Shown here piece after piece: positions 11,376 through 63,518 of a DNA stretch of 64,000 nucleotides; position 1 is the stretch's first letter, and each line of letters opens with the position of its first letter. The translations under genes were made by a program, and so were the position numbers. The stretch comes from Cenococcum geophilum 1.58 (Eukaryota > Ascomycota > Dothideomycetes > Gloniales > Gloniaceae), in assembly GCA_001692895.1 (NCBI GenBank), contig KV748206.1, positions 937,610-1,001,609 on the forward strand. Direction: 5' to 3'. Below the pieces are notes generated by a model that saw only the letters and a program-made list of their open reading frames with translations, was not told where the DNA came from and did no database searches.

Positions 11376-12576
11376 ATGACTACATCGTGAGTCCCAATAC
11401 GCCTCCTAACCTAGCGATTCTCTAGAAAAAGGCCAGGTAAAAATCACAGCTCACTGACATTATCCCAGATGGCCGTTTCGGCAGCTTCGAGTGCCTACCC
11501 AAAATGACCTCCACTTCGAGCCTGCGCAACTGCGACGTCTTCCCGCAGAGCTTCGGTTGGTAATTTTCTGCTTCGTGTTTGATGAGAATTTCGGGAGAGA
11601 TCATCGGATCTTGCTGTGTCGGGATTCTAGCAGCTTGGAGTTTTTATACAGCGAGGCTCTGCAGAGAACATGTCCATACTTGGATTCAAGACTTGTCGGC
11701 CTAGACGTTGCAACAGAGGCCGCAGAGGCATTTTATCGAAGCGGAATTCACCTTTACTCTGGCCTAGGCCAGCTCCTGAATGTCTTGGAGCACTGTCCAC
11801 TCTCGTCAAATGCCACCCCCGGCAGGTTCGTCACATGTTTGAGGTTGTCCATTGACGAAGACGTCGAGTATACCGGTGATAATATCGGCCGTCACTCTTT
11901 GCGGAAAGCAGACTGGGTGCTGCTAGATGACCAAGACAATGAACGAATGTTGCAACCAAGAAGATCACAGCTAATGCGACGCTGCTCTAAAGTCGTGTTA
12001 AAGATGCCTAAACTAAAGATTTTCCACCTCCTTATTAAACCAGCCGATGAATGGAAGTCGGAGGACAAGCTTTCACTTTGGGAGATGAGGGATTGTGTCC
12101 CTATTATCTTTCGACTGCGGGCACGCGGCATCAATGCCTGTGCCTTCCTGAAAGTCATGCCATCGATAGGAAATCTAAACGGAAGTAAACAGAAGGTAAA
12201 CGAAACACGATACATAAACTCCACTGTTGACGTTTCGATGTGTTTCCCATTCTACAACCCCATAAACAATGGCCTATCTGACCATGGCGGCATCGTGCAT
12301 GTCGGTGAAGGAGTTTATAGCAGAAACAGCCACAGCTGGGAACAGTCTGATATTCGAAGGCGCAACGCAGAGGCACTGAGAGAATTGTTTAGCCGCCTGG
12401 CTGCCGACAAACGTAAGCATTCCCCACAAACTTCTATTTTTACTAATAATACTGTTTCAGGTCTTGACTATGTTGACGGGGACTTTAGAAGGGTAGTCAA
12501 GAAAAATGGGAAGAGAGGACCGGTTGGTTTAGGCCCATCAACAGAGCAGGCGCAAAAGAAGGCCCGAAAGTCATGA
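11376..12576 (+). CDS. F-box-like hypothetical protein
   Basis: The main frame lacks an upstream ATG, so a small first exon is proposed: 11376-11386 (ATGACTACATC), intron 11387-11468 (GTGAGT..CCCAG), exon 11469-12412, intron 12413-12460 (GTAAGC, TACTAATAAT, TTTCAG; 48 nt, so frame is kept either way) and exon 12461-12576. The product is 356 residues, starting MTTSWPFRQLRVPTQNDLHF. LRRLPAELRLVIFCFVFDE (from about residue 22) resembles the F-box-like motif common in fungal proteins of unknown function, which would recruit a substrate to an SCF ubiquitin ligase. The C-terminus is basic (KKNGKRGPVGLG..QKKARKS) and could be a nuclear localisation signal. No other domain is recognised. It lies directly beside the large transposon nest. 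Confidence 0.7.
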
Positions 12577-13089
12577 AGGTTAAATTTCATTGAGACACCA
12601 TTGCTCAGATCTGATTGTCATGGGCACGTAAATATCTTAATCTGTTGAATAGAATGATGTACTCTGACATATTTGCCTTAGTTTGATAGCCTCTATGATG
12701 TACAGCTATAACATATTCGGCTGTAAAAGAGTGCTTCGGGGCATACCTAAACTCTTTCCGAAATTTGGATCAGCAACTGAACGACTTGTGGGCAGTGATT
12801 GTATTGGACTGGGGTAATGTTGGAGCTCCATGTGGATCTAGGGGTCGCATCGGAGCTGGATCTAGTGATTTTAGATCCGGAGTAGAGTGGATCTGGTTGA
12901 ACTGGGGCTCCTGGAGCTCCAGTTCTATACCCGAATGGGAAGAGTTCTATACCCAAATCGGAAGGAGGTTAAAGGAGGAAGGACCAAAATGTGTTAATGC
13001 GGGTATTAAGGACTAGCAGAGCCAATTGTTAGCTCTAGCGGTGAGCGTCTGCCCTAGAAAACGCGTGTATTATTAGTATAGAATTAAGG

Positions 13090-14229
13090 ACAGCTTGTTA
13101 TCGTCGCGTTGTTGCTGCTACTTCTACCGTCTAACCTTATTTTCTCTTACCTACCTACTGCCGCTATGGAGCGATTTTATTTTTAACTCCGCACCTTTAT
13201 TGTATCTAACGACGTTATCCTTATACTGGAGTGGCTTAACAAAAAGGCTAAGGGCTAGGCGGAGGTTAAAGAGTTTAAGCTATAGGGTAAGCAGTATATT
13301 CGCTATAAGGCCTTAACAAAGGGACCAAAGAATACTAAGCTACGATCATCGCTAATTTGGAAGTAGGGGGAGGATATATAGGAGAAGGATGATACTACTA
13401 AGACGTAGTACTTCTATTGCTACCTATATAAGAAGGTAAAGCGTCAGTAGGAGCTTATAGTTGTATTATCTAGAAGAACTACTGCTTTAGATTACCTTAA
13501 ATTTAACTACTATATAAACTATATTTCTGGCGAGCTTTAACTAAAAGAACCTTTACCAAATTAGCTAATAATTAAGGAATATCCATAGGCAAAGTCTCTT
13601 AATCTATAACGAAACTTTAAGGCCTTTAAATACCTATTAATTTAATAGATTGTTAGCTACTATATCGCCTTTTTTTAATTTAAAAACGAGTATTTCTAAA
13701 TACTCCTATTCTATATTTATCTAGGGCTTATAAAGTTCCTACTAAAGACTAAAAAGATAATACGCGGTTAGGTTATTACAGCTTTTAAATAAAGGAAAAT
13801 AAAACTAAGGAGGGAACTCTACGCAGCTTATAGTTCTATATTAATATCCTTTAATCTTTAGACTTTACCAAATAGGTATATAATTCTGGGTATTGCTACC
13901 TATTTTATTAACCAGTATAGTAAGCGTCGGTATGTAATACTAGGCCTCCATAAGGTAGTTAGTAAATATAGTAGCGAGAATATAGCGGTTGTCCTGCTTA
14001 CTCTATTTAAGGAGTATTAAATTAGTGGCAATATTAGGTATTTTATGGCTAATAACGCTAAGTTAAACAATACCTGTATTAACGCAATCCTTTAAGTCCT
14101 CTATTTAAAGATATTAGTAAAAAAGCGGAAAGAACAACGGCTATACTGCTTTGGCTATATTACAAATCTCTACGCGCAGGCTTTTATTATTAGAAAGGAT
14201 GCTAAGAAAATCTATAAGGAGTTGGTAAC
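13090..14229 (+). pseudogene. hAT transposase, 5' part (RIP-mutated)
   Basis: Across stops the plus strand reads a BED-finger-like segment (near 13380-13450, cysteines in YFYCYLYKK), then RNFKAFKYLL, SEYSSENIAVVLL-like sequence and the hAT core segment RLYCFGYITNLYAQAFIIRK (about 14140-14200), equivalent to the RxxCxAHxxNL region of hAT transposases. It ends at KELVT, where the copia element interrupts it. Stops are mainly TAG at expected Trp or Gln positions. No intact frame survives. Confidence 0.85.
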
Positions 14230-14423
14230 TGTTGGAAATATAGGGCAAATCACTAATACTACTCGAGTAGATACAGTGATGGAATAGGTTCTTGTTCTAG
14301 ATAGGGGAGGGTAAGAAATTTAAGGTTCCTCACCACGCTAGTGCCGCAACGGCACGTGACGGCAAGTTGCCTCACGTGACGGTAATATGCCGCACGTAAG
14401 GGCAAATTGCCTTATTCCTAACA
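14230..14423 (-). repeat. copia LTR (3' LTR in element orientation)
   Basis: It begins TGTTGGAAATATAGGG and ends CTAACA. It contains the block GTGCCGCAACGGCACGTGAC, followed by repeated CACGTGACGG motifs. Same length as the other LTR. Confidence 0.93.
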
Positions 14424-17400
14424 CTAGCAACTCTTCTTTTTATAGTTGCTATCTATATATAAACAGATAGTATATAATAATACGACCATAGGCAGACTAT
14501 AGCAGAATTTAGTAGGTAATACGCCTTATTCTACCGACCCAAACTTCTACTAACTAATTACGATTTTCTATCCCCAGGATAGAAAATTGCTATTAGCTCA
14601 CTTACTACTAGCGCCTTAGCGGCCCTTACTACATCTTCTACTCCCTCTTAACCCAACCTTTAACTTATATATATAGAGTATTTATATTAATAAACGTCTC
14701 TAGTGCCTTATTTAGGTTTACCTTCATCATTACATCTGCTAGGTTATCTTAGCTATTAATCTATTAAATCTTAAAGAGTTCTTAACGCTTATAAAATTGC
14801 TATAGTACTATAATATTAATTATAAGGCGCTTCTCCTTTATAGTACTAAGCTTAACTAAATACTTATAGAGGGAATATAAGTTGGTATATATAATCATAG
14901 AGATAACGGGGAGTTTAAGTTAATCTATAATTATCTTTAAGGTAGTTCTAATTGCAATTGCTATATTAACTCCGCCAACTATTCTATATATCTCTAACGC
15001 TAGAACGCTTTAAGTAACGCATTTACTTTTAGTTAAGCTCTAATAAATAAGATTATTATAGATTGTAAAGTTACTCTCTCTAGTAGATTTATTTGCGATA
15101 ATAATCTTATATCCTAGCTAGAAGCTAAAATCTTTATTATTTATAAACGATCTATTAACAAATATAAAAAGCTTAGCGGTAGGAAGGTTAATAGGCACAT
15201 AGAGCAGTCCTTAATTAAGATAGCTTCTTTACTAGAAAAGACGCTTATTTAGGGCAAGGATATCCTCCTTAGTTAGTTCTTAGTATTAAGCGGCAACAGA
15301 GAGATTAAAGGAAGCTTTAGGTTAATAGATAGAAGCTATATAAGCTCTATAAGCGCGTTACTCTATATATCCTTACTTTAGAGAATTAACATTAATAACG
15401 TTAATCTTCTTGCCTTAACCTTTCTGGCGTAGGGCAATGGAATCCTTATTTAGGGAAATAATGCATCTATTAAAGAGTAATAGTATTATTAAATTAAGTT
15501 TTTCCTTTAGCTTTACTATAAGATTTACCTTTACTAGCTCATCTTCTTTAAGAGCTAAGAATTAGTNNTCTCCTAAGATAATTATATNNTCTATTTATAT
15601 NCNNANAATTCTAAATAGAGTTCCTATNGTTATAATAAGGAAGCAGGGATTAAATATAGAAGTAGTTATTAAAAGCTTCTCTTTATAGTGCTTGCTGTAA
15701 GTAACCCACTAATAAATTCCTACCTCTGCAATTCTATATAGTGGCTTAAGCACAACCATAATCGTATCTTTGGGATATTAGTGGCGAATTTGCTCTAAAA
15801 GGTATGCCAGTATTAAGCGCTAAAGGCGTATCTCTAATTAGGTATAGGCCTAGGTAATATCTTATAAATAAACCGCTATTCTATTCTTTATTAAGGAGGG
15901 AGCTAGCGTAATAATAACTCGCTAACTAGCTTATTAAATTATAGGGGATTATATAAGAATTACTTCCTTACCATTATTATTATAACCTTAAATAACTAGC
16001 CTTAACTTCTTAAATGGGGTATTAGTAGCTTTACCTTTAATCTTATTAACCATTCTTAACCTAAATATACAAACCCTATTAAACTTAATAGGGTTATACT
16101 TCTTAAACTTAAAGACTCCTCTTATAATAAAACCGTCGATCTCCTACTTATTAGATACTTAGAAAGGAGCTCCTAGAGTTATAATACGGCCTTCCTTTTA
16201 GAGCTATTTTGCGAGCTTAAAGTTAGCCTTCTCTTTAGCTGTTATAAAGGCTATTAATAGCTTAACTCTATTCTTAATAGCGGCAACAAGTTACTCTTTA
16301 AAATTAATAAGGTATTAGCGGTTTTGTAATCCTTTTAGGCGACCTCTACCGCGTTATAGTTGCGGCGTATCTACTATAGTTATATTAGGGTTATAGTCGC
16401 CTTCTAGGGCACGTTAATTATAGTTCTCCTCTAGGGCATCTCCTAGGGTATCTTCTAGGGTATCCTATAAAGGCTTAGAACTATTATCTTTATAGTAAGG
16501 CTTAATAATAGTTAAACGGAATTAAGTAGGTCTATAGGGTATCTAAAGAGTATAAGTCTAACCATTAATTATAATAAGTTTATATAGGCCTAACTATCCT
16601 CCCTTTTTACGCTATACGCGTACCTTAGATTAGAGTGGCAGATTAAGCGTAATTAAGGTATTTGGGCCATTTCTTATTCCTAATATATCGTTAACCTAAC
16701 GCGTGGCGTAGAGACGTCGCACCTCCTTTATTGCCTTGTAAATCGCCTCAGCTTATTATATAATAGAGGGAGATAGTAAAGAATCATTAGTTATTTAAGA
16801 GTAGGCGCTAAAGACTAGCAATATAGGTACAAGCCCATTTAGGCCAGCGGTATTGTTAATAGCCTTAATAGCTATCTATAGGATAAGCTTTTTACTAGCA
16901 CCCTTTAGTTTTAAAGAAATAATCTTATATACGCGGCGTAATAGCGTATAGTATTATTTTACCTTTCCGACACTATTATATGCCTTAATAGGGACTTCCT
17001 TAACCTTAATTATTATTACCTTTACCTATTATTAAAACTCTATAGATAAAAAGTTCTTTTCTATATCGTAAATAATTTAATTAGGGGGTCCTAGGTAGAC
17101 ATTAATCTAGTATAATTAAAGAGTATCCTATATATTCCTAGCTAATATATCTTTTAAAAAGCGTGCGGCTTAGAAGGAGGTTAAGAAGTTAATAACTTAG
17201 AGTACTGGCTTGCCGCTAAGATATATAACATCTATAATAATATAGAAGTTAAAGTTATAGTTATCTTTAAGGGTAAACTTAAATTGGCTGGGGGACTTCT
17301 AGTTTATTTAGCAGTAATAGCAGTACTTTATAAGATATTTAATTGCCTTAACCTTAACATTATAACCTGCTTATTAAAGAACCCTAAGCAGTTAGTAAAC

Positions 17401-19487
17401 GGATAGGTGGCTAAAATAACGATATAGTTAACGTAGCTCTAACTTAATTAAGTGACTCTAAGCAACGCTCCTTTTTAGCTATTAAAGGAGCAACTAAGGG
17501 TAACCCTACTTGCGTATAACGGGCACCTAATTATCTCCCTAAATAAGTATATTCTTAAGGTTATTAAGCTTAACGCCTAATTTATCTATATTTTAGATGC
17601 AGAATAGGAATAGGGTATTTATAGGAATAATATAGAAAGTAATATATCCTAACGGGGTTTAGACCTTAATTATGCTAAGAGAGATTATAGTACCCTTACC
17701 AAAGCGAATTATATATTAGCCTGCCATTAATTAGTTAATCTAAATAAAACTATTAAGCTGCTAAAGAGCTTGGACTTAAGGTTCTCCTATTATAGATACT
17801 CCTACGGCTCTAGTATCTGGCATAATACTATAAAAGACATTCGCCGAGTATCTATTGTTAAAGGAAAACGCGGAACTTTTCTTTAGCTTATTAAAGATAT
17901 CTAACCTTATAATAGAATAGAGCGTAGATTAGTTATTAAGGATAGCAACGGTTTATATGCTATTTACCTTACCATACTTAGTAAAGTATTAGTTAGGAGA
18001 GTAGTCCTTAATTTCTATATCTATAAGGAGTTGTTTAGCCTTATTAATCTTACCCTTAAGATCTTCTTCGCCTTTATATTAAACTAGAAAGCTTTAGAAG
18101 TAGGCTATAGTAACTTCTTAATTTCTAACATTTTATATGCTCTAGCGAAACTTATTATATACCTCCTTTCGTTTATTAAGGGGGTATCTAGTTAACTAGT
18201 AATTTGGCTTTATATAAACGTAGTATTTCTTCTACTAATTATTATAAAATAAACCTCTACAAGGACCTCCATAATTGCTTTATAGTTAACGTTAATTATA
18301 CCCTCTACTATATCCCCTACTACAATAACTATATATTTAATTAGTCTAGTTATAATTATATTAGTTAGCTAGGTCGATTAAAGTAGGTTAGAGTTAGGTA
18401 TTAAATTGCTATACTTTTTAAGAGCGTAGGGCGGTGCTAATAGAGGATCTTAATTAAGTATATACTCCTTTATAAGTACTTATAGGGTTAAAGAGAGTAA
18501 GGTTATATTCTTTAATACCTTAATATACGCTAATAACTTAATTATATAGGCTAAAGTCCTCTTAATATAATTTGGATAAACTACGCTAAATTATTTAGAG
18601 TTAATTAAAGAGCTTTTAAAGATAATCGAGTTAAGAGGCACCTAGGTTTATAGCAATAATTCTTAGAAAGGTAGTCTCTCTCCACTCCGACATATACTGC
18701 TGCTTATTCTCCTTTATTTTAAAGTAGCATCTTATTTTATATATTATTCGGTTAAAATTATATCCTTTTCCTACTAAATAATTATAGTAGAAGGTACTAG
18801 CTCGGCCCTTAAGTATAACTAAATAAGTAATATAGTATTAATTAGGTTCTAGTCTAACCTTTTAGTAACAGTCGTAGAAGATATATAACTTTAAATTAAG
18901 GATATTATACAGTTCTCTACTAAACTTCTTCTCCTATTCTAAATAGAGCTTTATAAGCTCTATAAGCATTTTTAAGGTGCCTCTAATTAGTATTTAGCTA
19001 TATTATATTATAGGCTGCAATAATAACGTAGATCTAGTTAGCGAAGTTTAAAGGTTATTAGACCGCGAAGTAAGGGGATCTTGTACTTATTAGGGGTTGT
19101 TAATTAAGGCTATAGGTTAAGCTAGTTAATATAGGGGAGTTAAAGATAGAGGTAGAGGTAATAGATATAGAATATTAAAACTTATGCCTAGAGTAATAGA
19201 GTTAAAACGCGTCTCTAGTAGTATATTACTTAGGTTCCATTATAATTTAAGCTTCTTTATAGTGCGTAGTTAGTGCTTAATCTCTTATAGAGTCTATTTA
19301 TACTCTTCCTTTATATTAATAACATATTCCTAAATATTGTCCCTAATACTACCCCTATCTATAGGGATAAATACTCTATACTCCTAAAGGAAGTTACGGA
19401 AGTCCTATACAATATCTTTATTTATAGGAACCTATATTTCCTTTATCTATTTAATAAAGTCCTCCTTTATATAATACTATAGCGCGG
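14424..19487 (-). pseudogene. copia polyprotein (3' part: gag-end/IN/RT/RNase H), RIP-mutated
   Basis: Read on the minus strand, 15000-15560 gives the end of reverse transcriptase and RNase H: EDELVKVNLIVKLKEKLN, then SIALRQKG, EDILALNKRL, LLYVPINLPTAKLFIFVNRS, FINNKDFSF-LGYKIIIANK and VLALEIYRIVGGVNIAIAI. This is the fungal copia RNase H (catalytic VDxSF changed to VNRSF, an Asp-to-Asn change expected from RIP). Integrase and gag should lie at higher coordinates by the order of copia elements, but I did not resolve their motifs. Stops are dense. Ns at 15567-15568, 15588-15589, 15601, 15603-15604, 15606 and 15628 mark assembly ambiguity within the repeat. Confidence 0.8.
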
Positions 19488-20295
19488 TATTATTATATTC
19501 GCTAGCCCGCGAAGCCCTACTGCACGCGTCTACGTCGCCGCAGGTGGAAACATCATCGGGAAATCATTCCTTATAATGGCTAAGTGCAGAGGCGATAGAG
19601 GAGAGCCGTCGCAGCGCGCGCAGCGCGCTGGTGTTGCGACTCTGTGGTGTTGAGCCTGCGACGCGTATATCGCCCTCAACAACACCAGGAGTCCTACTGC
19701 CCCCGCTTAGGGCTCCTGCTATACCATCTAGGGGGGCCATTAAGGGAAACTAGGATACGAAAACCGCCCGACGTATGACTACCTGGCTCGCAGCTAGGCC
19801 CGAAACTGGCCTTATTCAGCCAGTCGACGTAGACGCGCCCTAGGCGTACGACAGGACACCCTTGGGCTTGCACTAGCTCTAAAACCGAGAGGATACGGCA
19901 AAGGCGTAGGGAACCTCTTTTTATAAGAACTTGTTAAGGTTAACGCGTCGCAGATACTTTGTACGAAACTTATTAAGGCCCTAAGGCTACCACGAAGAAC
20001 TTATTAAGGCCCTACCTAGAGAACTCGTTAAGGCCCCTCTATGAGGGCCTATCTGGTATCCGGTATACCCAGGTAACTCAAAAAAGGGTCTTAATAGGCG
20101 TAGTACGCGCGACCTGGACGACGGCGACGCGCCGGCGACGTAACGGCAATATAATGGCGACCGGACGGCGACCAGACGGCTTAACGAGGTGGAAACACGG
20201 GTAAAGCTCTAGGTAGCGGAAACACAGGCCAGCTTTGACGGCCCTATGGCGTTCGACTTACAGTCAACTCATAGTTGACTTACGGTCGACTTATA

Positions 20296-20402
20296 GGCGA
20301 CTTATAGGAGGGTCTTAATAGGCGTAGTGCACGTAACCTAATGCGCATATGTATAAGGCGACTTATAGGAGGGTCTTAATAGGCGTGGTGTACGCAACCT
20401 AA
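20296..20402 (+). repeat. 61-bp tandem repeat in LINE 5' leader
   Basis: Two near-identical units begin GGCGACTTATAGGAGGGTCT at 20296 and 20357. Earlier in the leader, GAACT(T/C)(A/G)TTAAGG occurs several times between 19925 and 20040. Repeated 5' leaders are known to hold promoters in LINEs; that role is inferred. Confidence 0.7.
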
Positions 20403-20799
20403 TATATATATATGGGGGAGGCTGCAGGGGAAATATAGGCCAGTTGGACGAGGACTTAATAGTTAGAGATATAGGCCAGCTTATAAAAAGGGGGGACATA
20501 AGCTTAGTTAGTAGGAGGGGGGAGAGTAGGTCGCCTGGTGCGGGACCTAGTCTTTACGGCCCCCCTCCTATAAGACACGGTCGGCCTATTATAAGGAGAC
20601 TCTTATAGGTAACGCGAAACGGGAACTAGTAGTATATAGGGTGTTGCGCCCCTATATTACTACTAGCTTCCTATAGGGCGTAGTACGTAGTAGCTACTAC
20701 TGGCTCCAAGGACCTTATCCCTTAATTAGGCTCTGACCTTTAGTGCACCTGGTAGGCAGGTAGGATTATACCCTAGCTAGAGAGACTACTACATGGCTT

Positions 20800-22300
20800 A
20801 AGAGAACGGATGCGCGTATTAGTATATTAATAGACGGAACCGTTCGCCTCTAGGGCGGCTCGCCAATAAGATATGCTTAAGGAGCAAACAGGAGTTACTC
20901 AGGCGAAAGAGGCAGTGGCTCGGCCTCGTCCGTAGAAGGTATACCCAACTATATTACAGGATGTAGCTACGACGCCTCTATAGGATTACGTCAGTAGGCG
21001 CGAAGATAGGAGTTGCGACCCCTAGAAACGGTAGCTTATGCCCACGCCAGCGGAAATAATAAAGAAGGCGTGAAACTAGAGGCTATGGAAGGCTCCTAAG
21101 CCGTACAAAAGCGTACCAACTCTAGAAGGAAACTCTTATATAGACTACTAGGGGGTAGACTAATACTCGGGTAATACCGTTATAAGATATCCAAAAGAAC
21201 TAGTAAAATTCCCCGCAATTGGTGGTGGCAGCTAACTGCTTATAGTTTAGGACTAAAGTACTAAAAAACTGGGGTAGAGGCCTAGATAAGTAGGTATATT
21301 AAACTCTACTGTATTACTAGCTAATATATAACTACCTGCTTATACTAGGACTTAAAATCACCTAAATCTAATAGCTTTGATAGGAAAATATAAACTAAGT
21401 ATATAACGAAAACAATAAGAGGATATGAGGGTCGCTAGAGACTCGCTAGGGAGACGCTAGACGAACGCATGGCTCCCTTATTATCAGCATATATATACTA
21501 GGAATGCAAAAACTCCTTATCTAAAAAGGAATAATTATAAATGGCCTTATATATAATACAAGGCTCTATAACCACAGACTACGCCTAAAATAATGCTATC
21601 GCTATATATAATAGGGACATACCCAATCTATATACGCAGTATAGGTGTGCTGCGGCCACTATACAGGCCCCCACGATATAAGATATTACTTAAATTAAGA
21701 CCAAACAAAATGCGCAAACTGCCACCGAAGCATATATAAGGCGTAGGAGAGAGAAGACTGCATTAAATACAGGAGATGGAAGGTAAGGGCTTAACAGCTA
21801 CGGGAATAACTGTACGCTAGGTTATATAAATGGAAACAACAGGTAATAAGCTAGGGGGACATAGGCGCCTTCCTAGCGTTTCCTACCTTTAACACTAGAG
21901 GGCTAGGCCAGCCATCCTAAGCCTTAACGGGCCAGAAGCGACGCTACGCGACATCACCAGACCGATCAGGGACATAAGGGCCATAGGGGATATAAGGGAG
22001 AGGACGCCCCGTAGGAAGACCCCTATGGACAGCAATAGCAGGCTTAAGACTAGGACAATTAAGAATTAGACTTAATGCGGCAAATATAACATTCGCAGCC
22101 AACCTATAAAGGGTATATAGCTAACCAGTAAGAATAGGGGAAGAACCGGTAATAATAATAGATTTAGATATAAAAGCGCTAATAGGAACACAAGACACGG
22201 GAATAGAAAGCTCTATATAAAATAAGTAATAACTAGGGTATAGATATAAGAGATAAAAGCTCCGAATATTCTAGAGAAAGTAGAAATAAAAGAAGCGAGA
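20800..22300 (+). pseudogene. LINE ORF1 (gag-like, zinc-knuckle), RIP-mutated
   Basis: Across stops, 21600-21770 reads a CCHC-rich stretch containing CCGHYTGPHDIRYYLN, then KCANCHRSIYK and DCIKYREWKVRA, the zinc knuckles that end Tad-type ORF1 proteins, which bind the element RNA. Upstream sequence is low-complexity and boundaries are approximate. Confidence 0.7.
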
Positions 22301-22329
22301 AATAAAGGAAAGTTAAAGAACCCTCGCCA

Positions 22330-25300
22330 GGGGTCCGCCACCTATCCATTATATAGTATAACTACAGCAACACAAACCACCGCCTCGCAAGGCCCCTACT
22401 AGACAGTCTAGACCCAGAGAAACACTATATCCTTACTATACAAGAACCGTATTATAATACCTTCACATAATTAATATACTGCCCCCAAGAATTCCAGCTC
22501 CTATACGAACTAAAAGCAGCTATACGCATATACTTTATAATCAGCAAGGCTATCAGCCTGTCCTTATAGTTATAGCAAGCAGTTAACCCAGATATTGCAG
22601 TTATAATAATCTAAACATATAGGGGACCGGTATAAATTATTAATGTATATAACCCTAGGGTTAAAGGGGTCCTATAAACAGAGAATATTATATTAGTAAT
22701 AAGCTTATTAAAAACCAAAGGTATAGAGTCTATCCTACTAGGAGATATAAACCTCTACCACCCGTAGTAGGGGGGTATCCATATTGCTGCAGATCAACAG
22801 TTAGAGTGCCTACTAAGAGCTATAGATATCTAGGGCCTTAAGCTAGCCACCCCCCTAGAAGCAATTATATGGCAACGAGGCACCGCCAGAAGTATAATTA
22901 ACCTTATATTTATGGACGAAGGCCTATACTAGAGACTTAAAAGGTACAACCCTAAAAAAAAATAGGCACTTACCCTAGACTATATCCCTATCCAGATATA
23001 GCTAGACCTAGATACTAAAGCGTAACTAAATAGAAAAAGATACGTAATAAGGAAGCTTAAGATAGACAGTTTCCTTAATGCAGTTAAACAACAACTCTAA
23101 GACCTAGAAGAAATCCACCCAATACTAAACGAGCGAGGCTTATTGGCCACCCCTAAGGAAATTAACCAAAGACTAGAAAGGATCTAGGCAGCAATTAAAA
23201 ATAGGCTAAAAGAGCACTACCCGATCTTAAAACCGGGCCCCTATGCGCAATATATATGGTCCACACAATACGCAGTTCTGGTTGCCAGCTAATAATAAGC
23301 AAGAAGGAAATATATAAGTAGCCATAACCTTAAAGATAAGAGACAATACAAAGATATAAGAAACCAGCTAAAGAATACCCTAAAAAAAGAAGTAAGGAAT
23401 AACTGGAGACGGTTTATAAACAAGCATACTTCTAACCCGAGCCTCCCCCATAATAAGGGCCTTTAGGCTATAGCGAAATAGGTAAAGAAAAAGGCAGGGC
23501 GCCTAGTAGAAGACCTATACCTACCACCCCTATAAAGAGCAGGAGAATTATAGGCCACAAACGATAATAATAAAAAGGCAAAGATCCTTATAGAAAGGTT
23601 CTTCCCCTAACCGGCTCTAGCAGACCTTAGTAATATTATAGGTAAAATACTGGTGACTCGCCTATAGGTTAACAGCGACATAACAACAGAGGAAATAGCT
23701 AGAACTATTAGCCGCCTTTTAAACAATATAGCACCAGAACTAGATAGGATTCTAAATAAGGCCCTAAAAACCTATGGGCCACTTATAGCACCTTAGCTTA
23801 TAGATATAGCCAGAGCATGCTTTGCTATAGGCTACTACCCATAACTCGGAAGATCTATAACGACGGTTATCTTATAAAAAGAAGGTAAAGTAGATTACTT
23901 AATCCTAGGAAGCTACCGCCCTATTACCTTAGAAAACACCCTTAGTAAGATCTTAAAAAGGGTAATAGCGAAACGCATAGCAGACACGGTAGAGGAACAC
24001 GCCCTACTACCACAAAGCTAAATAGGGGCAAGAAAGAACCGCTTAACACTATCAGCACTTACGCTACTCGCTGCCACTATTAAATCTGCATAGGCGATGC
24101 GAAAGGACTTTGTAGTATTAATGCTTAGTCTAGACATTAGTAGTGCCTACAACAATATACCCCACGAGCGTCTTCTGCATATCCTTAGGGCAAAGGGCTT
24201 CCTAGAATGGATTATACAATTTATCTAAGGGTTTACAGGCCAGAAAGAAATATCACTAGTCTTTAGCGGATACTAGAGCCCCCCTATTATAGTTACAACA
24301 GGAATACTACAAGGATTACCCCTCTCGCCTATACTCTTCCTTTTCTTTATAAGCAACCTGCTTAACTCCTTTAAGGAAGGGGTAACCTAGGGGATAGGCT
24401 TTGTTAATGATACAAACCTAATTATATACGGGCCAACAGCTGTAAAGAATTGCAGAATACTAGAGAAAGCCTATAATACTTATATAGAATAGGCAAAACG
24501 TTATAGAGTCTAATTCTTACTAGAGAAATACCAGCTAATCTATTTTATAAGAAAACGCAACCAATCTGCAGATCTTTAGCATATAATTCATATCTAAGGC
24601 TTTAGGGGTTAACCAGTTTAGGGCCTAAGGGTATTAGGAGTATAGGTAGACAGTAAGCTTTAGTGGAGCACATATATGGTGTAAGCGGCCCGTAAAGGCT
24701 AAGTACAGTTTATCGCTTTATCTAGGATTGTTAATTCTATATAGGGTCTATGCTTCTAGAGGTCACGCCTACTATATATAGCAGTCGTCTGGCTAACCAT
24801 AACATATAGATCCAGTATTTGGGCTATTGGAGAAACTAAGAAGGGCTCCCCTAAATTACTCCTTAAACTACTTTAAAAGGTCTAAATAGCCTACCTCTAG
24901 AGTATTATAGGCGGGTACAAGCGAACGGCTATAGCACTGCTTAAGAAGGAATCCAATATTTCCCCCCTATAATTATATATTAAAGCCGCTATAATATAAA
25001 GGACACAAAATAAACGCAACTCTAATATTATAAAGTATATTAAGACACGCCTAAGTAAACTATGGAGGGACCCTAGGGTACCCTATAGGAGAACAAACCA
25101 ACAACCCTAAAGTAGGGAAGAGATATTAGAGAAATAGGTAAAGAAAGTAGAAGAAGAATGGTGCCGCTTTAGGGCCTAGGCCTATATAGAGGAGAAAGGG
25201 AGACGCATAAGAGGTTAGTAAAGATAATAGTAAGATAGAGAAAGGAGCTAAAGTAGAATATATAAGAACGCTAGGAAACCATCTACCGTAATACAATACT

Positions 25301-25750
25301 GGTTGGACCAACGCTAAAGAGGTAAATAGGAGTTAAAGGTATAGAGGCTAACTTAGGTAAGATAAACCCAAGCTATAGCATGGTTAACGCTATAGGGGGT
25401 AAATACCTAAGGGCTCTGAGAAGGCCTAATAAAGGCAGAAAATATAATAGCAACACTCTTAAGAACAGGAATAATAGGACTAAAAGATTAGCTTTACTAG
25501 GTGGGTATCCTAGTAGGTAGCCCGAGATGCAAATATAGCTAGCTAAGACAGACACCAAAACACGTAATACTGCTATGCCCCCTACGCACCAATTAAGAAA
25601 TAATACTCTTAGTAGCTAGCACAGAGAACTATAATATACTGCTCTTAATATAAAAAGGCCTTAAGGCGATTACCTAGTGGCTTATTAGTTAAAATATACT
25701 AAATCAGTTCTAGGTTGTAAGGGAAATGGTAATAAAAGGTAAGGGGGCGA
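22330..25750 (+). pseudogene. LINE ORF2 (endonuclease / reverse transcriptase), RIP-mutated
   Basis: AP-endonuclease-like part: SLDPEKHYILTIQEPYYN, INVYNPRV and ILLGDINLYHP (about 22340-22990). Reverse transcriptase (about 23700-24600): YRPITLENTLSKILKRVIAK, SLDISSAYNNIPHERLL, TGILQGLPLSPILFLFFISN and GFVNDTNLI, where the catalytic FxDDT has become FVNDT (Asp to Asn, as RIP would give). The C-terminal Cys/His segment ends with TPKHVILLCPLRTN (about 25560-25590). Trp codons appear repeatedly as TAG. Confidence 0.88.
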
Positions 25751-26055
25751 GCAGCAGGTGCCCCCTAGTAACTCTACAGTAGTAGAGTAATAGTTTATAA
25801 TACTAGCGCGTCCGTAGGCTTGTTACGGCAGTAGTGGTTCCCAAGGAGGTTAAACAGTAAGGTAGTAGAGCACTATAGGCGACTTGTAGGCGCTAAGCAG
25901 GCGAGTCCCAAAAGGCGGGGAGATGGATCATAGGGTTTTCTCATTTTTCTTAAATAGAGTTTTCTCCCCATATATAAATAAGGAGTAGTCCACGTGGGCC
26001 CAATAGGGATCCGAATCGGACGTTAAGTAATGAATTATTATTATTATATTCGCTA

Positions 26056-26584
26056 TCTTTATAGTGTTCTATACGGTATACTAAGAATCTATTTAGGTCC
26101 TATTACTTAGCGGTTACAAAGTTAGTTACGGCTCTATTCTATATCTCTAGGTTAATATCTTTCTTATACTTCTTCGGATAGGTTAACGCTATAGTAGGTA
26201 GAATTAACAAGGTGTTATATATCAAAGGTAGGTAGGATTTTTGGTTTTATAGGATCTTATAGGTTTACTGTCTAAAGGTAGGTAATTTAAGATATTGTTT
26301 AACGCGTTTCGGACATTAACTTAGGACCTTAGGTTTAGTAATACTTCTAACCTAAAGTACTTAACCAAATCTTTATAAACGTAATTATTCTGCGTAATAG
26401 ACGCAATTTAGTATCTCCTAGTACTTAGTAACACTTCTATTACTAGTTTTCCGCAAGTCTAAGGTAGCACAGTATCGCCGGGATCTATTCTATATAAGCG
26501 CATATAGCACCCCTATACAAAACTATCTCTTCTATCAATAACCTAGCTGCTCTATAGTTAACTATATATTTAACTACTAATTAG
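26056..26584 (-). pseudogene. copia 5' internal remnant (gag start, primer-site side)
   Basis: The stretch between the LINE and the 5' LTR is the upstream part of the copia element (minus strand). It should contain the primer-binding site next to 26585 and the gag start, but mutations hide both and no motif was identified. Confidence 0.55.
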
Positions 26585-26778
26585 TATTAGAAACACAGGG
26601 CAAATTACTAATACTATTTAAGTAGATATAGTAATGGAATAGGTTCTTATTCTAGATAGGGGAGGGTAAGAAATTTAAGGTTCCTTACCACGCTAGTGCC
26701 GCGATGGCACGTGACGGCAAGTTGCCTCACGTAACGGTAATATGCCGCACGTAAGGGCAAATTGCCTTATTCCCGACA
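26585..26778 (-). repeat. copia LTR (5' LTR in element orientation)
   Basis: It begins TATTAGAAACACAGGG (first dinucleotide mutated from TG) and ends CCCGACA. It aligns over its full length with 14230-14423, including the GTGCCGCRAYGGCACGTGAC block. Confidence 0.93.
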
Positions 26779-26783
26779 GTAAC

Positions 26784-28356
26784 TGCCTATTATAAATAGG
26801 ACTTTAAGAAGGTATATAAGCTTTGGAGGAAGCGCAAAGTAGTTAATCTGCTTTATAATATTATACGGTATATTTATATAACTCCCTAGCGTTATAGCTT
26901 CTTTAAAAAGATTTAAATTGGTAGTAATTTGGCAGAATTTAATAGCTTAGAGGTACGTAATAGACTTATAGTATTAAGTATTTGTGCTATTTGCTAACCG
27001 GTAGAACGCCAGAGGCGCTTCCTGATTAGCTATAGCTTCGGATTTTTATATCTACCGCTCTACGGTTATAATATTCTGCCTATAGTCGCAATATTCTGCT
27101 TATAGTTGTAATATTTAAAAGTTATACTAACGATCTACTAGCTTATTTAAAATAACTAAACGCGTTAGAACTCCCTTTTTGCAGCTATTAGCCGCTTTCT
27201 AAACTATAAAGAGCGTGTTATTAAGTTTTATAATAACTATTCGCCATCTACTAACTTAAAGGCGCTTATATATAATAACTTCCTCTAACCCCATTACTGG
27301 AAAGAACTTAAATATCTATATAACTACCTTAAGACGTTCTATAAGGCTATACTTATAGTAGAAGGCAATTATATAGGTCTTACTAACCACTTTTAGACTC
27401 TAGATTAGCTTATAATAGAGCTTAATTAAATAAAGCAGAAGTTTCTTAAGCTGGCGGCTAAAAAACGAAAGTAAGCTAAGGCTTAAAACTATAAGATCTT
27501 ATTTAGCTGCGCCAATGCAGTATAGGAGAAGTGCGAAAAGTACTATAAGTACGCCGATAATACGCTAGCTTACTACGCCACAATTGTTCTTAATCTAATA
27601 CTTAAGATATAGTGGTTTAAAGAGAAATAGAATGACTATAAGGTTAAGAAGCACTAGATTCTATAAGTAAGGAAGCTAGTAGAGGATCTTTTCCTTAAAT
27701 ATAAAGGCAGGCGCTGTCTTAATTAAGAATTATTATCTAGGTAGGTACCGCGGCGGAGGTAGTTAAAGGTCTATATATCTGCTCGGGCTTATAAACGCTT
27801 AAAGACTATTTATTAAGAAGATAATACGTTACTAATAGAAATAGATAACCTCTAGGAGTACCTTAATACGAACGTTAAGGTTATTAAAGACGACGAAGAC
27901 TTTAACGTAATTTAATACTGGTAGGACCGCTATACTAGCTAACCTAACCTTGCTTAGTTTACCCTTAATATCCTCGCGGTGCCTCCTATAAGTAATAAAT
28001 GCGAACGCCTATTTAGTAGCTATAAGATCCTCCTTAAAGACCAATAATCTTAACTTTAGATGGATATAATTAAGGTAAATAAGGTCCTTTAGCACTTATT
28101 TAGGCCTCCGCGGAAAGATATATTTAATAATAAGGATATTAGTAAGGCAGAAGGCAAACCATAGGCTTTATTAGGAATACCACTGACAGAAGCCGCGAAG
28201 GCTTATACTGCTGCGGATGTCTTTATAATTGCTGCTGCGTAGGTGGAGCTTTCTAATAATAGTATGGAGGGCTTTGAGGAGGTCCTAGCTCTAATTAAGG
28301 GCAACAATAACGATATTGCTGAGGTTAATGTAGTAGATGAGCTCAATTGGATGTAA
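26784..28356 (+). pseudogene. hAT transposase, 3' part (RIP-mutated)
   Basis: It continues the frame interrupted at 14229: DFKKVYKLWRKRKVVNLLYN, SIGSNLAEFNSLEVRNRLI-like sequence, LKTFYKAILIVEG, and the hAT C-terminal dimerisation motif PPISNKCERLFSSYKILL (about 27975-28040). The tail ends near DELNWM and a TAA at 28354-28356. Stops are mostly TAG. Confidence 0.87.
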
Positions 28357-28566
28357 TATAGGCTATTTTTGCATTAGATTTGGTACATTTGCTTACCTAC
28401 CCGTCTTAATATCAACACCAAAATCGTGCTAAGACTTACTATTTATAGTATATATTTGCATTGGATTCCTTTGGAGCTCCAGAAGCCAAATTCTAAAAGA
28501 ATTGGATGGACTGGATTTGAGCTTAAATCCAGTCCAGTCCAGTCCAATACAATCACTGCTTGTGGG

Positions 28567-28979: not shown

Positions 28980-31289
28980 TTAAACCGCCACGTCTTCCAC
29001 TCTGACTAGTCCGCACCCTAACCCTGCAGCTGCCCAACCTCCAAACCTCAAATTTGGGTTCCATGCAAGTTGTGTGACTGCTGTACCCTCTTCGTAAATA
29101 GTAGCAAAGCGGGTGCCTTCCTGCACATTTGGGCCTTGCGCTCTTTGGAGTTGGGTAGTCTCGGGTTTGTGGCCATCTGTGATGCGACTCAGAGGTTCGC
29201 GGAGAGCTGAGAGGGGTGGACGAGCTCTGGAGGTTGTGGCTGTGGATGATGATGGAATTTGAGGGCCAAGAGCGTTGGGTGTGCTTGGTTCCGCGGGTTG
29301 TGTCACTGGCGTTGCGGCTGATACTCCATCTTCAGCTCCAGCTGTGCTCGCATCATTTTCCGGGGTCTCCTTCGCATTCATTCCTCTCCTCCATTCATGC
29401 CCAAACCAAACCTGTTGCCAAGGCTCCGTCTTCATATCTAGGACCCTCCTAATTGGGTTGCTTGCTAAAATGAACCCATCGGCGGTTCCAATTAGTACAC
29501 TCGGGTGTACTTGACTACTCGCGATCGCTAGAATTTGTGCTTCGGCTCGCATGCTCGCCATGTGCATGTAGAACCTTCGTATTGGCTGATTTCTTAAACA
29601 GTAGTTCTCGTCAGATGTGAGAAATGACTGTGTCCATTCATGCCAGGCTATCGCAACACCGAAGACGCGGCTGCGGGCTGAGAGTACGGAGTCGAGATGT
29701 GGGGAGCGGATATCAGTAAGGCGGACGAAGCCATCTGCGCTGCCGGTAGCGAGAAAGTGTGGGCGCGAAGGGTAAGCGGAAGTAATGTTAACTATGTAAG
29801 AAGCGTTTAGGGTGTGGTATAGCCAAGGGCGGGGGTTTGAGGTTGTGTTGGATAAAAGCTCGGGCGTGAGAGTCCAGATGGCAATACTACCGTTAGCGGT
29901 GCCTACAGCGATGGTAGTGCCGGAGAGCCAGGTCAGACAAGTACAAAGGGTGTTTGGGGGTTGACATTCGAAGGTGGCTTGTTTGATGTTCAGATAAAAT
30001 GGAGATGATGTTGTAGGTTTTGGGTATTGGATATCAAGGACCCTGACTTTTCCATCGCCCCAAATGCCAGCCAGAAGTCCCATATGAATAATGCCATCAT
30101 CGTTCGCCTTAATCACATCCATCATTCCGACTGGACACCATTTGAAATTCTTAACAGATCCCCAATCTGTGCAGATAACCAGCTCAAGATTGGGAGGCGT
30201 TTCTGGGTCTAGTCTATGATTTTCTGAGGATTTGAATCCCCAGATCTGTATCGAAGCAGGAAATGGGCGTTGAGGTGTAAAAGAAGGGGCCTTGGGATTT
30301 TGGAAAGGTTTATATGATCGGCCAGTGGTATTCTTTTGTAGAACGGATATAGACAGATATTGCGTAGCTCCTGTTTCATTTGGAAGCCATTCAAGGATTT
30401 GAATTTTATTTCCAAGATTCAATATCCAGCCTCGTCTTTGTAGTTTGCCTGAGTACTGAGAATCGTTTCGATTAGAAGGATCTGTCCACGGTTCATTAAG
30501 GCTTAGTCTCTCTCCTGTCCTGAGAGTATAGAGCTTTTGATTGCCGTACGGCCCCATGAGAAAATTGTGATGATTCAATGTAGGTTTAGGCATATAGGAG
30601 ACAGCGTCTTCAGCAGTGAGGCTTATTGTTTCTTGTCGGAGCGTGAAAGCATCCTTTGCTCCTTGCTCATGGTACCATTTTCTACTATTACATACTTCGC
30701 GTTCTGTGGCTCCTTTAGCGCAGTAGAAGCTGGGAGCCATGCCTCCAACTCCATATGCGTCTGCCTTCAGGGACGGTAGAGTCGGATCTGGTTGCCATTT
30801 ATCCCTGGTTTTTAGTATCGGGGCTATATCTTCCTTACTGGGTCCGAAAGTGTAGATGAGTCTTGTCTCTTTGGCGCCTTTGATACGAAATTCTGAGATG
30901 CCACGAGTATGGACCAGTGGTGGGTCAGGCCGATAATCTCGGGTGTCCTTTTGACGCTTTTTTGCAGTGGTAGGTCTATCTTGCTCTGATTCAGATCCAA
31001 CTATAAAGGTGTCTTCATTTACAACCTCCGGGCCTGGGTCTGTGATACTACCTTCTCTGGAAGAATTGCCTTCGGAAACAACACTGCCCGGGGGTAAATT
31101 CTCATCTTCAGGGAGATCAGGGACGTCATTTGCAGAGAACTCCTCCTCGCTGTCCGATGATACTGAGGTACTATCACTGGACCCCGAATCATCGGATGCG
31201 TACAGTACATTTTCCAGGCCAGTAAATGGGTCGACGTTATATTTCTTGTTGACCTGACGAGATCGGCCTGATCTGCGTAATTCAACCAT
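28980..31289 (-). CDS. WD40-repeat protein, probable TFIIIC subunit (Tfc6/Sfc6-like)
   Basis: An intronless frame of 769 codons. The N-terminus MVELRRSGRSRQVNKKYNVD carries a basic AT-hook-like patch and the PFTGLEN segment, followed by a long acidic/Ser linker (SDDSGSSDSTSVSSDSEEEF). The C-terminal two thirds reads as WD40 blades, for example LCTCLTWLSGTTIAVGTANG, SIAIWTLTPE, FLATGSADGFVRLTDIRSPH and a final VTQLAWNPNLRFGGWAAAGL. This layout matches fungal homologues of yeast tau-91 (Tfc6), which with its partner binds the B box of tRNA genes for RNA polymerase III. The assignment rests on architecture and remembered family resemblance; a different nuclear WD40 protein is possible. It is divergent from the E3-ligase gene. 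Confidence 0.7.
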   Translation of the reverse strand: MVELRRSGRSRQVNKKYNVDPFTGLENVLYASDDSGSSDSTSVSSDSEEEFSANDVPDLPEDENLPPGSVVSEGNSSREGSITDPGPEVVNEDTFIVGSESEQDRPTTAKKRQKDTRDYRPDPPLVHTRGISEFRIKGAKETRLIYTFGPSKEDIAPILKTRDKWQPDPTLPSLKADAYGVGGMAPSFYCAKGATEREVCNSRKWYHEQGAKDAFTLRQETISLTAEDAVSYMPKPTLNHHNFLMGPYGNQKLYTLRTGERLSLNEPWTDPSNRNDSQYSGKLQRRGWILNLGNKIQILEWLPNETGATQYLSISVLQKNTTGRSYKPFQNPKAPSFTPQRPFPASIQIWGFKSSENHRLDPETPPNLELVICTDWGSVKNFKWCPVGMMDVIKANDDGIIHMGLLAGIWGDGKVRVLDIQYPKPTTSSPFYLNIKQATFECQPPNTLCTCLTWLSGTTIAVGTANGSIAIWTLTPELLSNTTSNPRPWLYHTLNASYIVNITSAYPSRPHFLATGSADGFVRLTDIRSPHLDSVLSARSRVFGVAIAWHEWTQSFLTSDENYCLRNQPIRRFYMHMASMRAEAQILAIASSQVHPSVLIGTADGFILASNPIRRVLDMKTEPWQQVWFGHEWRRGMNAKETPENDASTAGAEDGVSAATPVTQPAEPSTPNALGPQIPSSSTATTSRARPPLSALREPLSRITDGHKPETTQLQRAQGPNVQEGTRFATIYEEGTAVTQLAWNPNLRFGGWAAAGLGCGLVRVEDVAV

Positions 31290-49696: not shown

Positions 49697-52030
49697 AACA
49701 TGCGGATCGTTGGTACCCCCCAACGAAAATTTTGACCCGAGTTTATGATTAATAAGCCGATTAATTAACCNAAAGCTTTAATTTAGAGCCTTATTATATA
49801 GAGCTTAATTAACATATACTAGTAGGTATGGATTTGTTTCGTAAATCCTATACCTCTGTCGTGCTTTGCAGTAGGGGGTAAGCTTTGGGCAGAGCCTTAT
49901 ATAGAGCTTTAATAGAGCCTTATATAGAGCTTTGGTAGAGCCTCATACGGAGCTTCGTGTAGAGCCTTGCGCAGAGCCACATACAGACGTGCAGACGTGC
50001 AGCTATTTGTTCTAGCGATTAATTGCAGAGACATTTGTAGAGACGATTATATAGGCAATTGTATAGGCGTTTAATTGATCGTTCGTACGGGCGTTTGTGT
50101 AGGAAATTGATTAATTAATTAATTGTATGGACGTTTGTAGAGCCGTGTGTAAAGCTATACATAGAGCCATTTATAGAGTTATTTGTAGAGACGTTCGTAT
50201 GGGCGTTTAGTTAATTAATTAATTAATCGTATAGGCGTTTATATAGGCAATTAATCAATTAATTAACTAATTATATAGGCGTTTATATAGGCGATTATGC
50301 AGACGTTCGTAGAGCCGTTTATAGAGCCTTCCTAGTATATCAGTTCTGTATGTTAGTAAAGCTTTAGAGCTCCGTATTAAGCTTTAAGTAGAGTTTCAAG
50401 TAGAGCTTTAAGCTTAAGGGGGAGACCCCCTTAGACCCCCCTGCGCACTGTGTGCTCTATTTACTACGTAGGCAGAGCTCTTATAGAGGCTTTAGTAGAG
50501 CGTTTAGTAGAGCTTTTACAGAGCTTTATATGGAGGTTTGTATAGAGCTTTTGTAGAGCTTTTGCAGAGCTCTATATAGAGCTTCGGTAGAGCTTCGTGC
50601 AGAGCTTTAGTGGAGCTTCGTGCAGAGCTTCGGTAGAGCTTCGTGTAGAGCTTTGGTAGAGCTCCGTGTAGAGCTTCGGTAGAGCTTCGTGTAGAGCTTC
50701 GGTAGAGCTTCGTGTAGAGCTTCGGTAGAGCTTCGTGCAGAGCTTCGTGCAGAGCCTTGTGCAGAGCCACATGCAGGCGTTCGCACGGGCGATTAACTGC
50801 AGAGACGTTTGTAGAGACGATTGTATAGGCAATTGCATGGACGTTTGATTGATCGATTGTATGGGCGTTTAATTGATTAATTGATTGATTGTATGGGCGT
50901 TCGTATGGGCGATTGTGTAGACGTTCGCAGAGCCGTTTATAGAGCCGTTCGTGTAGACGATTATAGAGCCTTCCTAGTATATCAGTGCTGCGTGTTAGTA
51001 GAGCTTTAGAGCTCCGTATTAAGCTTTAAGTAGAGCTTTAAGTAGAGCTTTAAGTAGAGCTTCGAGTAGAGTTTTAAGCTTAAGGGGGAGACCCCCTTGG
51101 ACCCCCCCTGCGCACTGCGTGCTCTATTTACTGCGTGGGCAGAGCTCTTGCAGAGGCTTTGGTAGAGGCTTTGGTAGAGCTTTTAGTAGAGCTTTTGCAG
51201 AGCTTCGTACGGAGGTTTAAGCAGAGCTTTTGTAGAGCTTTAGTAGAGCTCCATGCAGAGCTTTGATAGAGCCTTATGTAGAGCTTTAATAGAGCTTATA
51301 TTTAGGCTTGTTTTTAAAAGCCTTATAAACGACTTTGTATAGAGCTTTGAGCAGAGCTTTGTATAGGCGTTCGTGCAGGCGTTCGTGCAGGCGTTCGTGC
51401 AGGCGTTCGTGCAGGCGTTCGTGTAGACGTTCGTGTAGGCGTTCGTACGGACGTTCGTACGGACGATTGTATAGGCGATTGTAGACCTTCGTAGAGACGT
51501 TTATACGGGCGTCTGATTAATTGTATAGGTGTCTGATCGATTGATCGTATGGACGTTTGATTGATTGATCGTATGGGTATTCGTACGGGCGATCGTGTAG
51601 ACGTTTGTAGAGCCGTTTGTAGAGCCGTTTATAGAGCCGTTTGTACGGACGATTGTACAGGCAATTATAGAGCCGTCGTAGAGGTGTTTGTAGAGACGTT
51701 CGTCGAGACGATTGTGAGACTTCCTAGTATATTAGTGCTGCGTGTTAGTAGAGCTTTGGAGCTCCGTATAGGGCTTTGAGTAAAGCTTCGAGCAGAGCTT
51801 CGAGCAGAGCTTCAAGGGGGAGACCCCCTTAGACCCCCCTGCGCACTGCGTGCTCCATTCACTATGTGGCCAGTACACTGAGTGGGCAGAGGTGCTACAA
51901 AGTCTTTGGTAGAGCTTTTGGTAGAGCTTTTGGTAGAGCTTTTGCAGAGCTTCGTACGGAGCTTCGTGCAGAGCTTTTGCAGGGCTTTGGTAGAGCTCGA
52001 TGCAGAGCTTTTGCAGAGCTTTAGTTAAAC
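49697..52030 (-). mobile_element. Non-autonomous Helitron-related insertion inside the TIR element
   Basis: From TAACATGCGGATCGTTGGTA onward the sequence matches 55394-55500, the 3' end of the autonomous Helitron. Reversed, a hairpin with CGTTGG/CCAACG stem lies about 10 nt before the terminus, as at Helitron 3' ends. The body is the tandem-repeat array (next entry). The right boundary near 52030 is inferred from where the repeats stop and is uncertain. Position 49771 is N. Confidence 0.55.
49880..52025. repeat. Three higher-order repeats built of TAGAGCTTYGNG units
   Basis: Short units such as TAGAGCTTCGTG, CAGAGCTTCGG and, at 51370-51450, TTCGTGCAGGCG are arrayed over 2.1 kb. A longer order is visible: the block CCTAGTATAT..GCTTTAGAGCTCCGTAT recurs near 50332, 50971 and 51723, and GGGGGAGACCCCCTT..CTGCGCACTG recurs near 50408, 51085 and 51808, giving units of roughly 640-750 bp. 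Low-complexity frames (KLYTKLYRSSTRSSTEALHE) arise from the repeat and are not genes. Confidence 0.85.
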
Positions 52031-57530: not shown

Positions 57531-57597
57531 TTTGGTAAGTACTAATAAGTATAAGATTCTCGTATAAGATGGGCTTGATTACTTACCAAAATACAAA
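57529..57597. repeat. Short inverted repeat ATTTGGTAAGTA
   Basis: ATTTGGTAAGTACTAATAAG at one side and GATTACTTACCAAAAT at the other frame a ~70-bp segment at the junction of the 255-bp array and the next region. It may be a tiny insertion. Confidence 0.5.
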
Positions 57598-63458: not shown

Positions 63459-63518
63459 CGGGAAAATATTCGCAGGATGAGATTCAAGTAGACTTTGGTT
63501 TTCGCGTTTCGCGTAATT

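What the first reader, a model, noticed from the sequence alone, without database searches (positions are those of the whole stretch)
12785..28566. Three-layer transposon nest with every junction readable
A hAT element (duplication CTTGTGGG) contains a copia element (duplication GTAAC), which contains a Tad-like LINE (duplication TATTATTATATTCGCTA). All three duplications and both LTRs are intact although all coding regions are wrecked. This gives a firm relative order (hAT, then copia, then LINE) and lets each layer be excised in silico to recover ancestral elements. The motifs read across each junction (hAT transposase continues from 14229 to 26784) confirm it.
Basis: partly seen in the sequence, partly recalled or inferred. 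Interest (0 to 1): 0.75.

Follow-up and report, generated by a model that had tools for sequence, protein, structure and literature searches.

The report
Three nested dead transposons in fungus
A dead hAT DNA transposon holds a dead copia-type retrotransposon, which holds a dead LINE, and all three insertion scars can still be read; this is a clean example of an ordinary pattern in repeat-rich fungal genomes.

Summary
A hAT element (12793-28558; perfect 20-bp inverted repeats; 8-bp duplication) contains an LTR element (14230-26778; minus strand; two 194-bp LTRs; GTAAC duplication), which contains a LINE (19505-26038; RVT_1 domain; 17-bp duplication).

Other copies in the same genome show the uninterrupted sites: 8 of 8 close hAT copies that reach the site run from 14229 to 26784, and 28 of 29 fetched copia copies run from 19504 to 26056. 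Codon periodicity shows one hAT frame on both sides of the copia.

The interiors of all three layers carry the signature of RIP, the fungal mutation of repeats, and the two LTRs differ by 17 transitions only. Both copies of the LINE's duplication share RIP-type bases, so the copia was probably mutated before the LINE landed (one site, modest evidence).

Such nests are common: two of eight other close hAT copies are also interrupted, and published tables list similar ones.

The parts
12785..12792 (.). hAT target-site duplication, left copy CTTGTGGG
28559..28566 (.). hAT target-site duplication, right copy
12793..14229 (+). hAT element, left part (20-bp TIR at 12793-12812; N-terminal part of the transposase pseudogene)
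14225..14229 (.). copia duplication GTAAC, left copy
14230..14423 (-). LTR, 194 bp (3' LTR in the element's own sense)
14424..19504 (-). copia (GalEa-type) internal region, larger part, 145 stops in 1693 codons of the long minus frame
19488..19504 (.). LINE duplication, left copy, 17 bp
19505..26038 (+). LINE, 6534 bp, full length by both ends; RVT_1 domain at about 23884-24639
26039..26055 (.). LINE duplication, right copy
26056..26584 (-). copia internal region, 5' part; CHSeq1 CTAATTAGT at 26576-26584 directly after the LTR
26585..26778 (-). LTR, 194 bp (5' LTR in the element's own sense)
26779..26783 (.). copia duplication GTAAC, right copy
26784..28558 (+). hAT element, right part; hAT dimerisation region (PF05699) at about 27853-28041; 20-bp TIR at 28539-28558

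Best explanation
Three successive, independent transposition events, each followed or overlapped by RIP. A 3.2-kb hAT element cut-and-pasted into a single-copy stretch between two convergent ORFs (8-bp duplication). A 6.0-kb GalEa-type copia element, oriented on the minus strand, then integrated into the hAT transposase gene (5-bp duplication). A 6.5-kb LINE, oriented on the plus strand, then inserted into the copia by target-primed reverse transcription (17-bp duplication). RIP mutated all three layers to nonfunction. The copia copy probably already carried RIP-type mutations when the LINE arrived. Shown: boundaries, duplications, uninterrupted homologous sites, one hAT codon frame on both sides of the copia, RIP signature. 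Inferred: integration enzymology (from the families), and RIP between the second and third insertions.
For: TIR and duplications. 8 of 8 close hAT copies that reach the site continue 14229 to 26784 with one duplication copy; 28 of 29 fetched copia copies continue 19504 to 26056. LINE ends: 40 of 40 listed rows reach its last base and 38 of 41 rows start at base 1 or 2; self is included in both and both lists are capped. PF05699 E=1.5e-7 right of the copia; RVT_1 E=1.3e-20. Third-codon-position excess of transversions in one continuous frame on both sides of the copia; left half matches own-genome loci that hold a PF05699 match, best E=3e-15. RIP indices 0.97 to 1.56 in the interiors and 0.50 to 0.76 in the LTRs, against -0.32 and -0.07 in the flanks. 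LINE duplication: both copies are identical and share RIP-type bases; two random copia copies share the same 17-mer in 23 of 378 pairs, and 6 of 28 copies carry this particular 17-mer.
Against: Copia reverse transcriptase was not found by Pfam in the nest copy or in nine other copies. An own-genome RVT_2 profile gives only weak matches on one diagonal: nest E=0.93, best copy E=0.002, and only 4 of 17 pieces beat the best of 100 shuffles. The CHS stretch of the nest copy folds no better than shuffles (z=0.54). In the hAT comparison only 112 of 644 alignment gaps are multiples of three, so the relatives are decayed too, and the last 30 bases before the junction do not show the third-position excess (17, 0, 5). 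The nest lies in an assembly with N letters in the copia. The RIP-before-LINE step rests on one 17-bp site whose sequence is also the commonest among the copies.
Confidence: 0.95

Rival explanations
1. The nest is an assembly artefact: repeat copies from elsewhere were joined wrongly.
For: All three families are repeated (first-look candidates, unconfirmed: 83 for the hAT piece, 1214 for the copia piece, 461 and 1546 for the two LINE ends), and nine N letters sit at 15567-15628.
Against: Every insertion carries a matching duplication of a length usual for its family (8, 5, 17 bp), and at the two inner junctions the host sequence resumes at the exact base. A misjoin would not produce this three times.
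Confidence: 0.02
2. Order differs: the copia already carried the LINE when it moved into the hAT (LINE inserted first, then the composite transposed).
For: Duplications alone do not exclude a passenger LINE.
Against: 28 of 29 copia copies examined lack the LINE at this site; the other one, L059, stops 26 bases earlier and was not followed. RIP-type bases in both LINE duplication copies suggest an already mutated, so probably immobile, copia. A LINE breaking the coding region would require helper proteins for the move.
Confidence: 0.04
3. RIP acted only once, after all three insertions, on the whole nest.
For: All three layers show high RIP indices. The nest's 17-mer is the commonest among copia copies, 6 of 28, so a chance match of two independently mutated copies is not rare.
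Against: Two random copia copies share the same 17-mer in 23 of 378 pairs (6%); even given the first copy, the second would match in about 6 of 28 (21%); here they match fully and share TA at 19494-19495 and A at 19504.
Confidence: 0.25

Closest known systems
Nested transposon clusters of Mycosphaerella graminicola (PMC4522978; section 8 and passages read)
   Same: RIP-affected ascomycete nests with verified duplications, up to several levels deep; 78 clusters; Tad1-like and hAT elements in the catalogue; eight clusters there have a DNA transposon or unclassified element as base with a verified LTR-element insertion
   Different: The tabulated base elements there are LTR retrotransposons; here the base is a hAT with its own TIR and duplication, and all three duplications are read
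Fungal GalEa copia elements of Cenococcum geophilum (PMC5445492; abstract and passages read)
   Same: CTAATTAGT directly after the 5' LTR, palindromic with the last LTR base; the paper reports a 177.57-Mb genome with 10.4% GalEa and RIP 'probably'; genome here is 177.19 Mb with 1214 first-look candidates for the copia piece
   Different: Clade placement by RT phylogeny was not possible with this degraded copy
TinT (transposition-in-transposition) chronology (PMC3014933; search listing only)
   Same: Uses nesting to order element activity
   Different: As listed, that is a tool applied to primate Alu elements; here a single nest plus RIP states frozen in a duplication

Membership tests
hAT superfamily | 8-bp target-site duplication | tested here: met
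   this copy only, right flanks of other copies could not be fetched
hAT superfamily | short terminal inverted repeats | tested here: met
   20 of 20 bp; the left 20 bp is identical in 7 of the 8 copies printed, nest included, with different flanks
hAT superfamily | hAT transposase with C-terminal dimerisation region | tested here: met
   PF05699 E=1.5e-7, above curated cut-off; left half has no Pfam match but is similar to own-genome hAT loci
Copia LTR retrotransposon | LTRs TG..CA with 5-bp duplication | tested here: met
   (right LTR begins TA, a RIP-type change); shared with other LTR superfamilies
Copia LTR retrotransposon | RVT_2 reverse transcriptase downstream of integrase | tested here: inconclusive
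   no Pfam match; weak profile matches on one diagonal, best copy E=0.002, nest E=0.93, 4 of 17 pieces above the best of 100 shuffles; domain order read by eye from recalled motifs
Fungal GalEa clade | CHSeq1 directly after the 5' LTR, no PBS | tested here: met
   CTAATTAGT in the nest; in 31 other copy ends from 29 loci: CTAATTAGT 19, CTGATTAGT 8, CTAATCAGT 2, CTGATCAGT 1, CTAATTAAT 1; definition from PMC5445492. For the PBS only two published PBS strings were looked for and were absent
Fungal GalEa clade | CHSeq2, inverse complement with A/A mismatch, 12-41 bp on | tested here: inconclusive
   By eye ATAGAGCAG 20 bp on, with the expected A at position 3; the script score in the RIPed copy was 5 of 9, tied with others; RNA fold not better than shuffles
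Fungal GalEa clade | RT phylogeny | not tested
   no reference set held; nest copy too degraded
Tad-clade LINE | non-LTR reverse transcriptase | tested here: met
   RVT_1 E=1.3e-20; no repeat of 60 bp or more between its ends in the window self-comparison; 17-bp duplication
Tad-clade LINE | clade membership by RT phylogeny | not tested
   no reference sequences available; label rests on recall that fungal LINEs are mostly Tad
RIP | C-to-T changes, preferably at CpA, in repeated DNA | tested here: met
   CpA and TpG at 0.23-0.65 of expected inside the element interiors against 0.94-1.07 in the flanks; the LTRs are less depleted (0.58-1.05); LTR pair 17 of 17 transitions, 10 in strict CpA/TpG context

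The most novel reading that the evidence does not exclude
Target-site duplications of nested insertions preserve the RIP state of the host element at the moment of insertion, so a nest like this records alternating rounds of insertion and RIP (copia, RIP, LINE, RIP). With more than a thousand first-look candidates for the copia and for the LINE in this genome, the order of transposition bursts and RIP rounds could be read genome-wide without a molecular clock.
Probability: 0.55. Interest if true: 0.4.

Novelty: new member of a known kind. Interest (0 to 1): 0.27.

Why it matters
It is a fully resolved reference nest for a transposon-rich fungal genome: it fixes the exact ends of a hAT, a GalEa-type copia and a LINE family, and shows that LTR divergence is no clock for this copy because every LTR difference is a transition. 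The LINE duplication offers a way to ask whether RIP keeps acting between transposition bursts, which matters for a genome of about 177 Mb with so many decayed copies.

Tried and rejected
Pfam on X-at-stop frames of the copia found nothing in six frames. In the RT region, 10 of the 17 available pieces (nest and nine copies) were scanned: no reverse transcriptase, only sub-threshold DacZ_T matches in four copies. An RVT_2 profile made from 18 own-genome pieces gave no usable hit on whole frames (most of the other copies given there do not reach the RT region) and weak matches on one diagonal in the RT pieces (16 of 17 pieces appear in the printed rows, 4 of them above the best shuffle). The longest open stretches of four own-genome RVT_2 loci (L070-L073) did not match the nest copia by BLASTP at 1e-3. 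PDB sequence searches with both hAT halves found nothing. The CHS stretch of the nest copy does not fold better than shuffles. The GTAAC duplication is uninformative on whether the hAT was RIPed before the copia arrived, since 7 of 8 close copies carry the same T. Dating by LTR divergence was rejected: 17 of 17 differences are transitions. Published use of duplications to time RIP: none seen in the listings or in the passages of PMC10787394; those papers were not all read, so this is not a claim of absence.

Full report
What is there. One search confirms each junction letter by letter. The hAT element runs 12793-28558 with a perfect 20-bp inverted repeat and an 8-bp duplication. The LTR element runs 14230-26778 with two 194-bp LTRs and a 5-bp duplication. 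The LINE runs 19505-26038 with a 17-bp duplication, identical in 17 of 17 positions. By these coordinates the hAT itself is 3212 bp, the LTR element 5998 bp and the LINE 6534 bp. No ORF of 100 aa or more lies in 12785-28566. In the transposase frame the hAT interior has 25 stops in 411 codons on the left and 36 in 522 on the right; the copia minus frame has 145 in 1693; the LINE frame that holds the RT has 125 in 1679 from 21000 on.

Empty sites. The strongest test is whether other copies of each host element lack the insert at exactly this point. Eight of eight close hAT copies that reach the site (L010-L016, L022) read straight through from 14229 to 26784 with a single GTAAC, in one of them GCAAC. 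L017 and L035 do not reach the site. For the LINE site, 28 of 29 copia copies (L040-L068; 39 others were listed, 29 of them fetched) read straight from 19504 to 26056 with a single copy of the 17 bp; the exception, L059, stops matching 26 bases earlier. Both LINE ends are family ends: 40 of 40 rows reach the last base and 38 of 41 start at base 1 or 2. The stretch left of the hAT, 12184-12784, matched nowhere else in the genome.

hAT identity and frame. PF05699, the hAT dimerisation region, matches right of the copia (E=1.5e-7); the left half has no Pfam match. Instead, mismatches to 19 more distant hAT loci (alignments of 150 columns or more, about 65-82% identical) were counted by codon position on each side separately. 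Transversions per aligned base peak at the third position of the frame that would continue across the copia: left 0.101, 0.087, 0.189 and right 0.118, 0.077, 0.185. Against this: only 112 of 644 gaps are multiples of three, so these relatives are decayed too, and the last 30 bases before the junction do not show the pattern. The left half also matches own-genome hAT loci L090, L092 and L093 (best E=3e-15), and the right half matches further along those loci and L091.

The copia. The coding strand is minus. Directly after the LTR in element sense stands CTAATTAGT, which with the last LTR base is a palindrome. This is the CHSeq1 signature that PMC5445492 (abstract and passages read) gives for fungal GalEa elements, which lack a primer binding site. 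Among 31 other copy ends in 29 loci (hits not reaching base 228 of the 230-bp query were dropped) the same nine bases appear as CTAATTAGT 19, CTGATTAGT 8, CTAATCAGT 2, CTGATCAGT 1 and CTAATTAAT 1. The partner sequence CHSeq2 is only suggestive and the stretch does not fold better than shuffles. Reverse-transcriptase evidence is weak because the copies are heavily mutated. The paper lists Cenococcum geophilum at 177.57 Mb with 10.4% GalEa; this genome has 177.19 Mb. That the host is C. geophilum is my inference from these facts.

RIP. Composite RIP indices are 0.97 to 1.56 in the interiors of the three layers and 0.50 to 0.76 in the LTRs, against -0.32 and -0.07 in the flanks. The hAT ends themselves, about 200 bp each, show no RIP (-0.48 and -0.62). 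The two LTRs differ at 17 of 194 positions, all transitions, 10 in strict CpA/TpG context. So LTR divergence here measures RIP, not time.

Order of RIP and insertion. The 17-bp LINE duplication is copia sequence. In 28 other copia copies it varies at seven positions, all C/T or G/A. At 19494-19495 the copies carry TA 15, CG 6, TG 6, CA 1. Both duplication copies in the nest carry TA there, A at 19504, and CG at 19500-19501. Two random copia copies share the same 17-mer in 23 of 378 pairs; given the nest's own sequence, the commonest one, a second independent copy would match in about 6 of 28. Independent RIP of the two duplication copies after insertion is therefore possible but roughly 5 to 16 times less expected than a single pre-existing state. 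Inheritance of these bases from the source copia is not excluded; either way they would predate the LINE.

How ordinary is it. Of nine close hAT copies (the nest; L010-L015; the C2 copy L035+L016; the C87 copy L017+L022), two others besides the nest are interrupted with readable duplications: the C2 copy by about 43 kb with LTR-like ends and duplication AAAAC, the C87 copy by a roughly 2.2-kb element with ends CCCTTGCACAGATA and a 2-bp duplication. L012 is incomplete at both ends and was not followed. PMC4522978 (section 8 read) lists 78 nested clusters in Mycosphaerella graminicola, many with verified duplications and several levels. This nest is a clean new instance of a known kind.

Noticed in passing
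12793-12892; same in L010, L011, L013, L014, L015, L035: The terminal 100 bp of the hAT left end escape RIP: CA+TG counts 13-16 per 100 bp in all seven copies counted (nest included), as in the flank (9-19), against 0-12 further in. RIP seems to fade at the element ends; L017 was not counted and has RIP-type changes in its TIR.
   Followed up: partly
L035 position about 1688 and L016 position about 1500 (G000 contig C2): A second hAT copy is split by about 43 kb, bounded by an LTR-like start (TGTTAGG...) and end (...CCAACA) with duplication AAAAC: a bigger nest.
   Followed up: partly
L017 and L022 (G000 contig C87): Third interrupted hAT copy: a roughly 2.2-kb element with inverted ends CCCTTGCACAGATA and a TA (or AT) duplication.
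   Followed up: partly
59072-62804, minus strand: Degraded Helitron-like element: DUF6570 (E=3e-19), Helitron_like_N (E=3.5e-12), PIF1 and Pif1_2B remnants below their cut-offs (E=7e-5, 3e-4) in X-at-stop frames; 56000-64000 has RIP index 1.20.
   Followed up: no
56286-57526 and 49885-52025: Local direct repeats, about 80-84% alike at offsets near 255, 512 and 754 bp in the first and about 66-82% alike in the second.
   Followed up: no
15567-15628: Nine of the window's eleven N letters cluster inside the copia, perhaps unresolved repeat consensus in the assembly.
   Followed up: no
11491-12576 (+) and 28980-31289 (-): The hAT lies between the 3' ends of two convergent ORFs, about 0.6 kb apart before insertion by these coordinates; the right one resembles a WD40 protein, CDC20-like (E=2.5e-7, below the curated cut-off), the left one has no Pfam match.
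   Followed up: partly
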